From positions 1-64,000 of IMG/VR virus record IMGVR_UViG_3300011116_001123: a stretch of DNA of 64,000 nt. One strand, written 5' to 3'. Shown here one piece after another: positions 5,459 through 19,317 of this stretch (positions are counted from its first letter, which is position 1; each line of letters opens with the position of its first letter). Below the pieces are notes generated by a model that saw only the letters and a list, made by a program, of their open reading frames with translations, did not search any database and was not told the origin of the DNA. Source of the DNA: a virus. The translations under genes were made by a program, and so were the position numbers.

Positions 5459-6589
5459 TTAGAAATTTTGAGATTGCTTTATTCTTAAAATAAAATTATC
5501 AACTACAGTCTGACACTCTGCCTGAGTAACTAATTGTCCTCCGTTTTTACTCAATAAAGTTTTAATTGTCAAAATATTTTGTGTACCTGCACCTGTCGTG
5601 TAAAGATATCCTCCACAACCCCCAACATTAGTTGGTTGTGCGAAAGAAGTTACAGTTCCAAATGTCGAGTTCCAATTAGGGTGACCTAATAAAATATATA
5701 AGTCACAGTGTGATGGATCTCCAGCATTGTAAGTCTCTCGGAAGAATGAGTAGACGGTAAATCCACTTACAGTTGCTCCACTATAAATTGTTCCACTAGC
5801 TAACGTTCCTCCTCCATCAGCTCCTGAATTACCTCCTGTTTGAAATCCAATAGGTAGGTTAGGACCATAAGTTTCATTGTCTCTCGATCCCAAAACTGTT
5901 AGTGGTAAATAGGTTAAACTTTGTGTTCCAGTGTATTGTTGATATCCCAAACTAATGTATCCAAAACTCGTGTCTAAAGTTTGAGTTGTTGCAGATTGAG
6001 TGTAATCAACCGCGAATGGGTATGCTCCTGGATTATAACCTCCAGTACCAACGTATTCAGTGTTTGCAACTATCCATGGTGAAGAAATATTACCATTATC
6101 ATACATGTCTCCACCTCCGTCCTCTATGAAATAACTATTACCATCCAATTGATAAGCGTAAAAACTTGGATTCCTGAATTCAGGCATGTAATTTCTTAAA
6201 TATTCTGCTATAGTTTGAAGTTCAGAATACGGTGTTTTTGGAGAATAAGATGTCCAATATCCATTTGCATTCAACCAAGTTGCGGCGTCTGTACCACCTG
6301 TAAAGCTCTGGCCAAATAAACTATTTGTATATTGAACAAAAGAGTTTTCAGTCAATAATGGACTTCTAAAAAAGCCTACAGATGCAGTCACACCCGATAA
6401 TGGTGTTGGTTGAGTATTTCCTGAAACCGACTGAGCAATGACGTATCCTAATTCTTCATCGGGTCCATTCCAATACTGTGGACTATTGGTAAATCCTGAT
6501 GTTGGGGCCCCGATTGATAAGTCCCCTATTTGAGATGTTCCTGCAATTGAGGGTCCTGGATTGTATGCGAAAGGTCTTGCTTTTGCCAT
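5459..6589 (-). CDS. Phage tail/virion-type protein
   Basis: 376 residues, Gly/Ser/Thr/Asn/Tyr-rich and low in Lys, typical of beta-structured tail or fibre proteins. It begins MAKARPFAYNPGPSI, then GTSQIGDLSIGAP and NGPDEELGYVIA, a module I recognise from phage structural proteins. A TATTTATT-type late box precedes the ATG at 6589. A receptor-facing or baseplate role is plausible but not shown. Confidence 0.7.
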   Translation of the reverse strand: MAKARPFAYNPGPSIAGTSQIGDLSIGAPTSGFTNSPQYWNGPDEELGYVIAQSVSGNTQPTPLSGVTASVGFFRSPLLTENSFVQYTNSLFGQSFTGGTDAATWLNANGYWTSYSPKTPYSELQTIAEYLRNYMPEFRNPSFYAYQLDGNSYFIEDGGGDMYDNGNISSPWIVANTEYVGTGGYNPGAYPFAVDYTQSATTQTLDTSFGYISLGYQQYTGTQSLTYLPLTVLGSRDNETYGPNLPIGFQTGGNSGADGGGTLASGTIYSGATVSGFTVYSFFRETYNAGDPSHCDLYILLGHPNWNSTFGTVTSFAQPTNVGGCGGYLYTTGAGTQNILTIKTLLSKNGGQLVTQAECQTVVDNFILRIKQSQNF

Positions 6590-6618
6590 GATTTTTTAAT
6601 AATAAATATACAGGCACT

Positions 6619-6644
6619 AAAAAAGGGGACACCGTCGTGTCCCC
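6619..6644 (-). terminator. Strong intrinsic terminator (end of a candidate RNA)
   Basis: GGGGACAC/GTGTCCCC, a perfect 8-bp stem with a CGTC loop, followed by T6 on the minus strand. No minus-strand protein gene ends here, so it must terminate a non-coding transcript from 6.65-7.07 kb. Confidence 0.75.
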
Positions 6645-6783
6645 CAATTTTCCCCGTCGAGAAAATGTAGCGTGTCTTGTTGGATTAGGCTGATCACAAA
6701 CCTCAAGGATGGATGGTCCTTTGTTTTATTTATCGTCTCAAAACATCCAATAGTGACGTGTTTAATTCTATCTTTTTCAAGGT
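6619..6783 (-). ncRNA. Candidate small RNA between a host-type -7 box and a terminator
   Basis: The minus strand from about 6777 down to 6619 holds no open frame, begins just below a TAnnTTTG box (TATCTTTG, plus-strand 6784-6791) and ends in the perfect terminator at 6619-6644. This predicts a transcript of about 155 bases. Internal pairings such as TCTCGACGGGG are visible, but I recognise no known RNA family. The missing -33 element lowers confidence. Confidence 0.35.
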
Positions 6784-6913
6784 CAAAGATACAGGAAACA
6801 ACAACTTCTAACCTCCGATACCTGATTTTACGTTTTTCTAATTTATAAAGCGGAGAAGAAATTGTGAAGGTGAGTAAGGGAAAACACCACTATCAAACAT
6901 TCCGCTATCCATT

Positions 6914-7006
6914 TGGTGGCTGGGAGTGGGTTCGAACCACTGGCTCATCGGTGTTCACCCGATTGCTCTACCATGAATTCCGAAGAACTCCTGAGCTACC
7001 ACAACC
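6914..7006 (-). tRNA. Atypical tRNA, anticodon position GAA (Phe), UUCG hairpin inserted in the D-loop
   Basis: The minus strand folds as a tRNA. D-stem GCTC/GAGC; anticodon stem ATCGG/CCGAT with loop GTGAACA (anticodon GAA by position); 5-base variable loop; T-arm AGTGG-TTCGAAC-CCACT; 3' strand CCCAGCC, discriminator A and an encoded CCA. The acceptor pairs as 7 bp only with one bulged T. The D-loop would be a normal AGATGGTA, but a 16-base hairpin (GAGTTC-TTCG-GAATTC) is inserted after AG. G32 and C37 in the anticodon loop are unusual. It may be a decayed or special-purpose tRNA, but all tRNA arms are present. Confidence 0.65.
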
Positions 7007-7019
7007 ATATTGTTTCTCA

Positions 7020-7064
7020 GGGTTTGGAACCGAGTATCTTTCATCACCTGTAAGTCCCAAACCC
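7020..7064 (-). ncRNA. 5' hairpin element preceding the tRNA-like gene
   Basis: On the minus strand GGGTTTGG (7064-7057) pairs perfectly with CCAAACCC (7027-7020) around a loop of 29 bases. It starts about 5 bases below the host-type promoter at 7069-7100, so it would be the very 5' end of the transcript that continues into the tRNA. It could protect the 5' end or be a processing or regulatory element. It contains a TTCCAAAC stretch like a T-loop but lacks the other tRNA arms. Confidence 0.4.
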
Positions 7065-7068
7065 TTTA

Positions 7069-7100
7069 CAAATATAGAAAATTGTTTTCGGACTGTCAAA
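7069..7100 (-). promoter_or_regulatory. Bacteroidota-type promoter TTTG-N20-TATATTTG for the tRNA locus
   Basis: On the minus strand TTTG (plus 7097-7100) and TATATTTG (plus 7069-7076) are 20 bases apart. The predicted start falls at the GGG that opens the 7020-7064 hairpin. Confidence 0.65.
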
Positions 7101-7166
7101 CTATTTACGAAAAAAAGCCTCCCCTTTTTTGGGGCGTTTAGGACCGTTCCAGTTATGGGACAATTT

Positions 7167-7199
7167 AAGAGAACGATTCGCTACCGTTCTCTTTTTTTT
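7167..7199 (+). terminator. Intrinsic terminator reading on the plus strand
   Basis: AAGAGAACG (7167-7175) pairs with CGTTCTCTT (7185-7193), followed by a T-run. No plus-strand gene ends nearby, so it may block read-through or end an antisense RNA of the tRNA locus. Confidence 0.6.
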
Positions 7200-7207
7200 G
7201 TTGCAAC

Positions 7208-7215
7208 TATTTATA
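7208..7215 (+). promoter_or_regulatory. Late-type box TATTTATA
   Basis: Lies 12 bases before the ATG at 7228. Confidence 0.45.
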
Positions 7216-7227
7216 GAAAAAAATAAT

Positions 7228-7365
7228 ATGGCAAAAGGTACAAAGGGTGGATCTTCATCCCAATCTCGTAAAATTTCATTTGGAAAGAAAAGAACAGGTG
7301 TTGCAAAAAAAAGTTATTCCAAATACGAGCAAAAACCTAAAAAATATTTGGGTCAGGGAAGATAA
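7228..7365 (+). CDS. Small highly basic protein
   Basis: 45 residues starting MAKGTKGGSSSQSRK and rich in Lys, Arg, Gly and Ser, with no hydrophobic core. It looks like a nucleic-acid-binding or virion DNA-condensing peptide, but this is inference. The ATG at 7228 is chosen because a TATTTATA box precedes it and the frame upstream runs through the terminator hairpin. Confidence 0.6.
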   Translation: MAKGTKGGSSSQSRKISFGKKRTGVAKKSYSKYEQKPKKYLGQGR

Positions 7366-16797: not shown

Positions 16798-19245
16798 TTA
16801 TTCCTTCAAATGATTAAACCTGAAGACAATGTTTTCCTCTTCAGGTTTATCTGAAAACAACGGACCCAAATATTCTCTGAAGTTGTTTCTCAACTTCATC
16901 TCGATTTGTTTTTCAACCTTTTCGGGAGTAAGGTTTGGTATTTCACCTTTCAAATAGTTTTCCGGTGTTGGAACTTGTTTTCCGTCTATCACTTTCAAAA
17001 CGTCTTGAATATCCACGTTTACGACGTTCTTGTCGTCAATGTCTTCAACGGAAGAAATTTTGAACTTGATACTAATTTTCGGTTCCGCACCATAAGACGG
17101 AGATTTTGCGGTTGAAACTTTTTGAGATACTAATGAAGGTGCCATATCTCTAAATGCCTTTCGTTTAAGTTCCATAACTTTCTCATGAGTAACACCTCTC
17201 TCAATCATTTCCATTTCCTGACGAGACAATAGATAAACTTGGGACTCTAAGGTGTCGTTCCATCTATATGGTCGAGACGCATTCATTTGCTTCCCTGTGG
17301 AGGAAGAATATCTATCTGAGGTTTCATACCACTTACCGTCTTTGTAGATATAAACTGGATACCACCCATAAGACTCGACAATATATATCTTTCCATCCAT
17401 TGTTGCTCTCCAATATCCTCTTAGGTTTGAACCCTTAAATGGAAGTTGTGCTTTGGTATAAACCTTGGCATTATAATTTGGAGTACGTTTCCCTTTCATC
17501 TTTCTCGGATCGGTAAAGTTGTCCTTTGTCAATGATGAATAATCACCATCTTGTCGATAGTTCAAAAGATATAATTCCAAAATATATGGTGCAAAATCGG
17601 GATCGATTCCGAAATAAGGTAAATAATCCTTGATTGCTGTTTGTAAGTCTCTTTTGTTGTTGTAATTACTTTTTTGGGTATTAAGAATTTTGAATAGCTT
17701 GACAATCACCTTATTCGGTTCAATATCAATGTTGACCGCCTCATTCATCATATCATCACCACAAGCGGTAAGATAATATTCCATCAAATCATCACCATAC
17801 CAATTTTGGGCCAAGGGGAAAATTATATCGATAAATTTTTCATAACTACCCTCGGGAAAATAATCTTCATTGACAGTGAAAAAATGGTCAATCGCCATAG
17901 CGATAATGTTACCGGAATATTCGTATTCATCGGCATAGTCTCCACAAAGATCTGGAAATTCCTCCTGTGTCTCAAGAATATATTTCATGAAGGATTCCTT
18001 ATTAACCCTTCGTTTCAATCTATCCATAAAGTCAGACTCAGACAATAATTCATGCTGTGATTCAACAATTCTTTGAAGTTGTAATTCTGTCAAAATGTAA
18101 TCTTTTTTCATTTTCGATTCCGTAACTTGTATAGGTATTGTGGGTAAATCTGGATTATTCCAACCTAATTTTGGATAATTTGTACTTAAATATATATCAT
18201 CCATCGGATTTTTAGACAGAGCTTTTTCAAGTTCAGATGCAATATTTTTTTGGTCATTGAAACTAATTCTTATAAGTTTTATTCCATTCTCCTTACAGAA
18301 TTTGTTTTTCGCCAAATCGTTCAATACCCTTTCTTTGTATCCCTCCAAACCTCTGTACCTACCCTCTACAGGAAAAAAATGTTGTCTCCCATCGAATTCT
18401 GCGATTACAACGGTTCCATCTTCTTTAACGAAATAAGCGTCCGATTTTAATTTATTTCGATTTCCACTTCCTTTAAAACTGTACGCCCCTAATTTTTTTT
18501 CTGTATCGACCGTATATCCTGAAACTTTTAGTGTGTCCACCATAGTGTATTCTCCCTTCCACTTGATATTTCTTTCCTTGTTGCACACAGGACAAGCAAA
18601 TTTTAAGTGGTTATCAAAGTATGCTACGGTACCCTTAGGATAAAGATTTACTGGTGTCTCGTGATTAGTACATTTGAAATTTTTTACAAAGAGTCTAGTT
18701 TGATTCGATCCTTCACTTCTCGGAACTAAATAAAAATTTTCTTTTTCGAAACTTAGCGTTGTATCTTGAGGAACCGTACTCATAAACTTTTCTATCTTGG
18801 AATCAAGATCTTGTGGATACATTTGATTAAGCCATTCAGAATAACATTTTTTACATGAGTTTTGTTTTAATTGTTCCAATCTGATTTCACCAACCTCTCC
18901 ATGAACTACTCCTTCTGAATCTGTTTTTTCACATATTACTCCATCGATGGTTTTGTGATGCCTCTCATCTTTACCATACGTAACATTATCAAAGTTAAAA
19001 TCAGGAAATAATTCTTTAAGCTTTTCAGTAGTCTGTTTGTTGTCCTTATCTTTTAATTCGGACAACATATTTTGCATGGTAAGAGTTTGGTCACCAGTAC
19101 GATTTCTTCTATTACTAATCCATACTGCTATATCATTGTATTCGGGACTTTCATAAAAATCCTTCAATGTATTGAATTGAGAAATATATTCTTTAACTGA
19201 ATCTATATCCCATTTTGATTCTCTACCTTCCGAAATTACTTCCAT
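16798..19245 (-). CDS. Large fusion: nuclease-like half plus an internally tagged second half
   Basis: 815 residues from ATG 19245, preferred over ATG 19251 because the box TATTTATG (plus 19249-19256) ends next to it; the N-terminus MEVISEGRE is itself tag-like. Residues about 120-235 have CxxC pairs (CKKC; CPVC) of zinc-ribbon or treble-clef type. About residues 265-345 read as a PD-(D/E)XK/Vsr-like nuclease: VVIAEFDGRQHFFP, then NDLAKNKFCKENGIKLIRISF. At residue 379 a second tag begins, MKKDYILTELQLQRIVES, then LLSES. The C-terminal 430 residues are of unknown function (WRATMDGKIYIVESYGWYPV). It may be two fused genes, or one polyprotein cut by the head protease. Confidence 0.7.
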   Translation of the reverse strand: MEVISEGRESKWDIDSVKEYISQFNTLKDFYESPEYNDIAVWISNRRNRTGDQTLTMQNMLSELKDKDNKQTTEKLKELFPDFNFDNVTYGKDERHHKTIDGVICEKTDSEGVVHGEVGEIRLEQLKQNSCKKCYSEWLNQMYPQDLDSKIEKFMSTVPQDTTLSFEKENFYLVPRSEGSNQTRLFVKNFKCTNHETPVNLYPKGTVAYFDNHLKFACPVCNKERNIKWKGEYTMVDTLKVSGYTVDTEKKLGAYSFKGSGNRNKLKSDAYFVKEDGTVVIAEFDGRQHFFPVEGRYRGLEGYKERVLNDLAKNKFCKENGIKLIRISFNDQKNIASELEKALSKNPMDDIYLSTNYPKLGWNNPDLPTIPIQVTESKMKKDYILTELQLQRIVESQHELLSESDFMDRLKRRVNKESFMKYILETQEEFPDLCGDYADEYEYSGNIIAMAIDHFFTVNEDYFPEGSYEKFIDIIFPLAQNWYGDDLMEYYLTACGDDMMNEAVNIDIEPNKVIVKLFKILNTQKSNYNNKRDLQTAIKDYLPYFGIDPDFAPYILELYLLNYRQDGDYSSLTKDNFTDPRKMKGKRTPNYNAKVYTKAQLPFKGSNLRGYWRATMDGKIYIVESYGWYPVYIYKDGKWYETSDRYSSSTGKQMNASRPYRWNDTLESQVYLLSRQEMEMIERGVTHEKVMELKRKAFRDMAPSLVSQKVSTAKSPSYGAEPKISIKFKISSVEDIDDKNVVNVDIQDVLKVIDGKQVPTPENYLKGEIPNLTPEKVEKQIEMKLRNNFREYLGPLFSDKPEEENIVFRFNHLKE

Positions 19246-19317
19246 ACTCATAAATACCCAATAAAAACGAAATCCCTATGATTATAAAATAGAATTGTCA
19301 TATTGGAAAAAAAACAA

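What the first reader, a model, noticed from the sequence alone, without database searches (positions are those of the whole stretch)
6914..7006. tRNA with a UUCG hairpin inserted in the D-loop
Removing the 16-base GAGTTC-TTCG-GAATTC insert leaves a normal AGATGGTA D-loop, so the insertion point is precise. The acceptor has a bulged T, and the anticodon loop has G32 and C37. Such a D-loop hairpin in a tRNA is very unusual. It may resist tRNA-cleaving host nucleases (for example anticodon nucleases) or serve a non-translation role.
Basis: seen in the sequence. Interest (0 to 1): 0.75.

Follow-up and report, generated by a model that had tools for sequence, protein, structure and literature searches.

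The report
Phage tRNA-Phe with extra D-loop hairpin
This virus of bacteria carries a real, conserved tRNA-like RNA with a phenylalanine anticodon and an extra hairpin in its D-loop; about 40 distinct relatives exist in other phages, none was found in bacterial genomes, and several features suggest it does something other than ordinary protein synthesis.

Summary
On the minus strand (7006 to 6914) lies a complete tRNA cloverleaf with anticodon GAA (Phe), encoded CCA, a bulged T in the acceptor stem, G32, C37, and a 16-base GAGTTC-TTCG-GAATTC hairpin between positions 15 and 18 of the D-loop. It is not an assembly error: independent contigs carry it, and about 40 distinct phage relatives have different hairpin sequences that covary. 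All but one keep (T/C)GAA. They also keep the nucleotides that fold a tRNA into its L shape. The anticodon arm varies from 15 to 18 nt (17 in seven of eight tRNA-Phe-like sequences without the insert), position 37 is often C, and five of the phages also carry an ordinary tRNA-Phe. The window copy sits in one transcription unit: Bacteroidota-type promoter, conserved leader hairpin, tRNA, a new ~295-nt structured RNA absent from Rfam, terminator. Another branch of the family sits near GOLLD RNA. I judge it a phage-specific tRNA-Phe mimic that is probably recognised as tRNA-Phe but mainly works off the ribosome, as a decoy or carrier. Nuclease resistance is possible but untested. The anatomy is secure; the function is inferred.

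The parts
7069..7100 (-). Promoter, Bacteroidota type (TTTG-N20-TATATTTG), start of the unit
   Evidence: Pattern TTTG-N17-21-TANNTTTG matches here; the sigma-70-type scan also gives its best hit here, 11 of 12; conserved in L002, L003, L074, L031.
7019..7065 (-). Leader hairpin with conserved GATGAAAGATACTCGGT loop
   Evidence: Arms 7019-7030/7054-7065; motif in 107 viral contigs, usually just after such a promoter; 8 of 13 pairs show compensatory change; many of these loci also hold tRNA arrays, tmRNA or GOLLD.
6914..7006 (-). tRNA-Phe-like RNA with D-loop hairpin; GAA anticodon at 6956-6954, discriminator A at 6917, CCA at 6916-6914
   Evidence: model R1 scores 107.3 bits (the window copy is one of its building sequences).
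6975..6990 (-). Inserted D-loop hairpin GAGTTC-TTCG-GAATTC
   Evidence: covariation across relatives.
7001..7001 (-). Bulged T in the acceptor stem (GGTTG[T/A]GG over CCCARCC)
   Evidence: The same bulge (A or T) in all GGTTG-type relatives, including two without the D hairpin (L147, and L122 with a compensated stem).
6620..6913 (-). New structured noncoding RNA 'X' (about 295 nt), directly downstream of the tRNA CCA
   Evidence: 16 relatives aligned; 11 of 32 predicted pairs with compensatory change, including one of the long-range pairs that close the 5' part; no significant Rfam match in window or L012.
6624..6645 (-). Terminator hairpin GGGGGACAC-GACG-GTGTCCCC + T run
   Evidence: covarying in 16 relatives.

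Best explanation
The element is a phage-specific tRNA-Phe mimic. Shown from sequence: it has all stems, the tertiary-contact nucleotides (T8-A14, G15-C48, G18G19 with T55C56), A73 and a GAA anticodon, with an extra 4-7 bp hairpin in place of bases 16-17 of the D-loop, conserved as a hairpin rather than as a sequence. It has its own promoter and leader hairpin and is placed head to tail with a structured RNA. Inferred: it folds as an L, is trimmed from the transcript like a tRNA, and is recognised as tRNA-Phe (by PheRS or another tRNA-Phe-binding factor). Its odd anticodon arm and the protruding D hairpin make it a poor elongator, so its main work is off the ribosome, most likely as a decoy or dedicated carrier that occupies a host factor acting on tRNA-Phe while the host's or phage's ordinary tRNA-Phe decodes.
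For: About 40 distinct relatives; GAA kept in 39 of 40 while everything else in the anticodon arm drifts. Arm length 15-18 nt in the family against 17 in seven of eight tRNA-Phe-like sequences without the insert (leaving out one poor match; the eighth, L147/L122 type, is also 17); the review PMC7609411 states that the anticodon stem is consistently 5 bp and the loop 7 nt in tRNAs. C37 in 7 of 9 copies with a 17-nt arm. Hairpin covariation. One such RNA per phage, 25-55 kb from the tRNA cluster in six X-linked phages. Ordinary tRNA-Phe in the same phage in five cases: L011, L012, L023, L025, L109. Acceptor GGT...ACC-A73 shared with phage tRNA-Phe in most members.
Against: The window copy itself has a standard 5 bp + 7 nt arm with T33, and neither its near-identical sibling (L003, 12 other tRNAs) nor L031, L074, L007 and L013 showed an ordinary tRNA-Phe in the clusters read, so in those phages it could still decode. 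No expression, charging or binding data exist. Which host factor would be engaged is unknown. Several members show recent common descent, so counts are not independent events.
Confidence: 0.45

Rival explanations
1. A translating tRNA-Phe hardened against host tRNA-cleaving defences: the altered anticodon loop and the D hairpin block a nuclease while decoding continues.
For: Phage tRNAs with nuclease-insensitive anticodon loops are proposed for mycobacteriophages (PMC10264068), and phage tRNAs evade retrons and other defences (PMC11555353 abstract). Loop changes G32, C37 and altered loop sizes are in the right place. Some phages with the element lack an ordinary tRNA-Phe in the clusters read.
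Against: Arms of 15, 16 and 18 nt and C33 in the GOLLD branch would be expected to impair decoding. Five phages also encode ordinary, unhardened tRNA-Phe. A factor that attacks only tRNA-Phe would be needed.
Confidence: 0.25
2. A processing or structural module of neighbouring noncoding RNAs: the tRNA shape sets the ends of, or docks onto, RNA X or GOLLD.
For: In window, L002, L003, L031, L074 and L078 the CCA is followed directly by RNA X; the other branch lies near GOLLD. [quoted passage not shown]
Against: In L010, L011, L012, L020, L022 and L060 RNA X has its own promoter-like sequence after the tRNA, and in several of them the tRNA also has its own. The phages of L025 and L109 carry it without X in the stretches read. 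It does not explain the conserved GAA.
Confidence: 0.15
3. A decaying tRNA-Phe gene that tolerates junk in its D-loop.
For: Weak Rfam score (24.6 bits) and irregular anticodon arm in the family.
Against: All stems covary (96.3% of cells paired, 12 pairs with changes on both sides, 0 of 500 shuffles); different hairpin sequences of similar size; promoter, leader and terminator are kept.
Confidence: 0.05

Closest known systems
Canonical bacterial/phage tRNA-Phe (GAA)
   Same: Cloverleaf, GAA, A73, G15-C48, G18G19/T55C56, variable loop GTGCC/GAGCC like the GTGTC of phage tRNA-Phe
   Different: D-loop insert of 17-23 nt forming a hairpin, acceptor bulge in the X-linked branch, anticodon arm 15-18 nt, C37; mostly a separate locus
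tRNA-Sec (ARAGORN's label)
   Same: An unusual D-arm
   Different: No long variable arm, no 6-bp D-stem, anticodon GAA not TCA; the label is a mis-fold
tmRNA
   Same: A tRNA part joined to a long RNA; the same phages often encode a real tmRNA
   Different: Keeps a 4-bp D-stem and the whole anticodon arm; U3-G70 or U3-A70 rather than the alanine G3-U70 pair; no Rfam tmRNA match here
GOLLD and other large ornate phage RNAs
   Same: A large structured RNA next to phage tRNAs; GOLLD lies near the other branch of this family (PMC12286853)
   Different: RNA X is about 295 nt, unrelated by Rfam search, and no cage structure is known for it

Membership tests
tRNA (elongator, tRNA-Phe) | Acceptor, D, anticodon and T stems that pair | tested here: met
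   96.3% of cells paired, 12 pairs with changes on both sides, 0/500 shuffles
tRNA (elongator, tRNA-Phe) | Rfam tRNA gathering score (29 bits) | tested here: not met
   24.6 bits in the window; some relatives pass, e.g. L040, L104
tRNA (elongator, tRNA-Phe) | Nucleotides of the L-shaped fold: T8-A14, G15-C48, G18G19 with T55C56 | tested here: met
   Sequence and alignments
tRNA (elongator, tRNA-Phe) | GAA anticodon, T33, purine 37, 5-bp stem and 7-nt loop | tested here: inconclusive
   GAA, T33 and 5+7 met in the window; C37 not. Across the family the arm length is 15-18 nt
tRNA (elongator, tRNA-Phe) | Charging by PheRS and use on the ribosome | not testable with these tools
   Needs biochemistry
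tRNA-Sec | UCA anticodon, long variable arm, 6-bp D-stem | tested here: not met
   GAA anticodon, 5-nt variable loop, 4-bp D-stem
tmRNA | Match to the tmRNA family model | tested here: not met
   No match in the window or in 6600-7260
GOLLD RNA (for RNA X) | Match to RF02032 | tested here: not met
   No match in the window, in 6600-7260 up to E = 10, or in records G001, G002, G008, G011 that carry X

The most novel reading that the evidence does not exclude
Many Bacteroidota-type phages run an off-ribosome tRNA-Phe mimic with a D-loop hairpin as part of an RNA-based takeover kit (leader hairpin, tRNA set, tmRNA, GOLLD or the new RNA X), acting as a decoy or carrier against a host system that targets tRNA-Phe.
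Probability: 0.3. Interest if true: 0.85.

Novelty: new variant of a known kind. Interest (0 to 1): 0.68.

Why it matters
No paper found here describes a tRNA with a hairpin set into the D-loop as a conserved phage family; a review of non-canonical tRNAs contains no mention of phages, and searches turned up nothing matching. If it is an off-ribosome mimic, it points to a host process or defence that acts on tRNA-Phe, and gives a natural example of where a tRNA tolerates a protruding helix. It also links phage tRNAs to large structured RNAs of unknown function (GOLLD and the new RNA X), whose role is an open question.

Tried and rejected
Assembly error or chance: rejected. tRNA-Sec: ARAGORN artefact. 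tmRNA: no match. Known Rfam family for leader hairpin or RNA X: none at E up to 10 beyond tRNA itself and chance-level hits. Isolated, annotated phages carrying it: none found. Host identification by RNA X in genome contigs: no hits. D-hairpin GAA tRNA in bacterial and archaeal genomes: three hits, two archaeal and one a tandem remnant of an ordinary tRNA-Phe, none of this family. MAFFT alignment of all inserts mis-registers the hairpins, so covariation was counted on stems registered from the loop (these stems were chosen to pair, so only the variety of pairs counts) and on a subset with nearly equal insert length. MFE folding alone is not decisive. The gene downstream of RNA X (5459-6589) has no Pfam or PHROG hit.

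Full report
The thing itself. The window is part of an 88,930-bp virus record. On the minus strand, 7006 to 6914, the sequence reads as a full tRNA with a GAA anticodon and an encoded CCA. Between A14-G15 and G18-G19 of the D-loop sits GAGTTC-TTCG-GAATTC. The cloverleaf with this hairpin (-28.6 kcal/mol) is within 0.4 kcal/mol of the MFE, and the hairpin adds 6 kcal/mol. ARAGORN finds the gene but labels it SeC because it takes TCA next to the hairpin as the anticodon; Rfam scores it 24.6 bits, below its cut-off. It is the only tRNA found in the record.

Conservation. The exact D-arm is in two other contigs, 162.8 and 142.4 kb; in the tRNA of L002 the differences fall in loops or turn A-T into G-T pairs. 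After requiring T-arm and acceptor stem, about 40 distinct sequences form one family. Their inserts differ (GAGTTC/GAATTC, AACTC/GGGTT, TGTGAAG/CTTCACA, TGTGTGG/CCACACA, GGGAGA/TCTTCC, GATAC/GTATC), with 3 to 6 kinds of pair at each of the first six positions from the loop (the stems were picked to pair, so the variety is what counts). On a subset with nearly equal insert length, 96.3% of cells pair, 12 pairs change on both sides, and none of 500 shuffles reaches this; the D hairpin alone has 3 such pairs, the anticodon stem 4, the T stem 3. A GAA-restricted scan gave 42 viral stretches. The comparable scan of 84,980 bacterial and archaeal genomes gave three, none of this family.

What is kept and what is lost. 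Kept: all stems, T8, A14, G15-C48, G18-G19, TTC of the T-loop, A73, and (T/C)GAA in 39 of 40. In the GGTTG branch an extra A or T is bulged in the acceptor stem in every member, and also in two relatives without the D hairpin (L147, and L122 with a compensated stem). Not kept: anticodon-arm length, which is 15, 16, 17 or 18 nt in the family. Sequences without the insert found by the same test were nine: eight with 17 nt (one of them bacterial) and one poor match, L142, with 14. Position 37 is C in 7 of 9 family copies with a 17-nt arm, and the GOLLD branch mostly has C33. These are not features of ordinary decoding tRNAs (anticodon stem 5 bp and loop 7 nt per PMC7609411; purine 37 and U33 from general knowledge). 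The window copy is one of the more regular ones: 5 bp + 7 nt with T33, but G32 and C37.

Company. Upstream of the window copy are a Bacteroidota-type promoter (7100-7069) and a leader hairpin whose loop GATGAAAGATACTCGGT occurs in 107 viral contigs, usually just after such a promoter. Its stem covaries (8 of 13 pairs), and many of those loci hold tRNA arrays, tmRNA or GOLLD. Directly after the CCA begins a new ~295-nt RNA, here called X, ending in a terminator at 6645-6624. It has 11 of 32 predicted pairs with compensatory change and no Rfam relative. In L010, L011, L012, L020, L022 and L060 RNA X has its own promoter-like sequence; in the window, L002, L003, L031, L074 and L078 tRNA and X are fused. 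The second branch (GGTATTR acceptor) lies near GOLLD. The same phages carry large tRNA clusters, 25-55 kb away in the X-linked cases, and 8 of 14 records hold a full-length tmRNA match (seven over the cut-off). Five phages also have an ordinary tRNA-Phe (L011, L012, L023, L025, L109); in L003, L031, L074, L007 and L013 none was found in the clusters read.

Reading. Shown: a conserved, phage-specific RNA built as tRNA-Phe with an added D-loop hairpin, in a defined putative transcription unit. Inferred: recognition as tRNA-Phe, because GAA is the part of the anticodon arm that does not drift and the acceptor resembles that of phage tRNA-Phe. Inferred with less certainty: an off-ribosome role, from irregular anticodon arms, C37/C33, separate location and coexistence with ordinary tRNA-Phe. 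A role only in processing RNA X is unlikely because the two are often separate transcripts.

Limits. Hosts are inferred from promoter type only. Records are metagenomic and may be fragments, so absence of an ordinary tRNA-Phe is weak evidence. The pattern search fixes the D-arm sequence, so D hairpins on other isotypes were not surveyed; a few non-GAA tRNAs with long D-loops were seen. Literature was searched only in the open-access library.

Noticed in passing
window 6620-6913 (-); L002, L010, L011, L012, L020, L023, L031, L059, L060, L074, L078, L122, L129, L130, L131: A new conserved ~295-310-nt structured phage RNA ('X', starting AATGGAYAGCGG, ending in two hairpins with GACG loops and a terminator), absent from Rfam.
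   Followed up: partly
window 7019-7065 (-); L132-L208: A leader hairpin (GAACTTAYAGGYGATGAAAGATACTCGGTATTC) in 107 viral contigs, usually right after Bacteroidota-type promoters and in loci with tRNA arrays, tmRNA and GOLLD; often followed by a boxA-like GTTCTTTGAAA. Possibly an antitermination or stability element.
   Followed up: partly
L008 (- strand, offset 6340), L017:4516, L034:690, L042, L044, L097, L098, L104:257 and neighbours: Circularly permuted tRNA-like elements (T-arm before D-arm, 5' and 3' ends joined by an 8-13 bp stem that differs between loci yet still pairs, e.g. GGTGGACGT/ACGTCCACT against GTGTGGGTGT/ACACCCACAT) flank the D-hairpin tRNA in GOLLD phages.
   Followed up: partly
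window 7123-7200: A stretch just upstream of the promoter with terminator-like hairpins is identical in L002 from 7145 to 7200 and nearly so down to 7123, although the flanking gene differs; may be another small RNA.
   Followed up: no
window 16798-19251 (-): 817-aa protein with HNH/homing-endonuclease matches, i.e. a probable mobile element in this phage.
   Followed up: no
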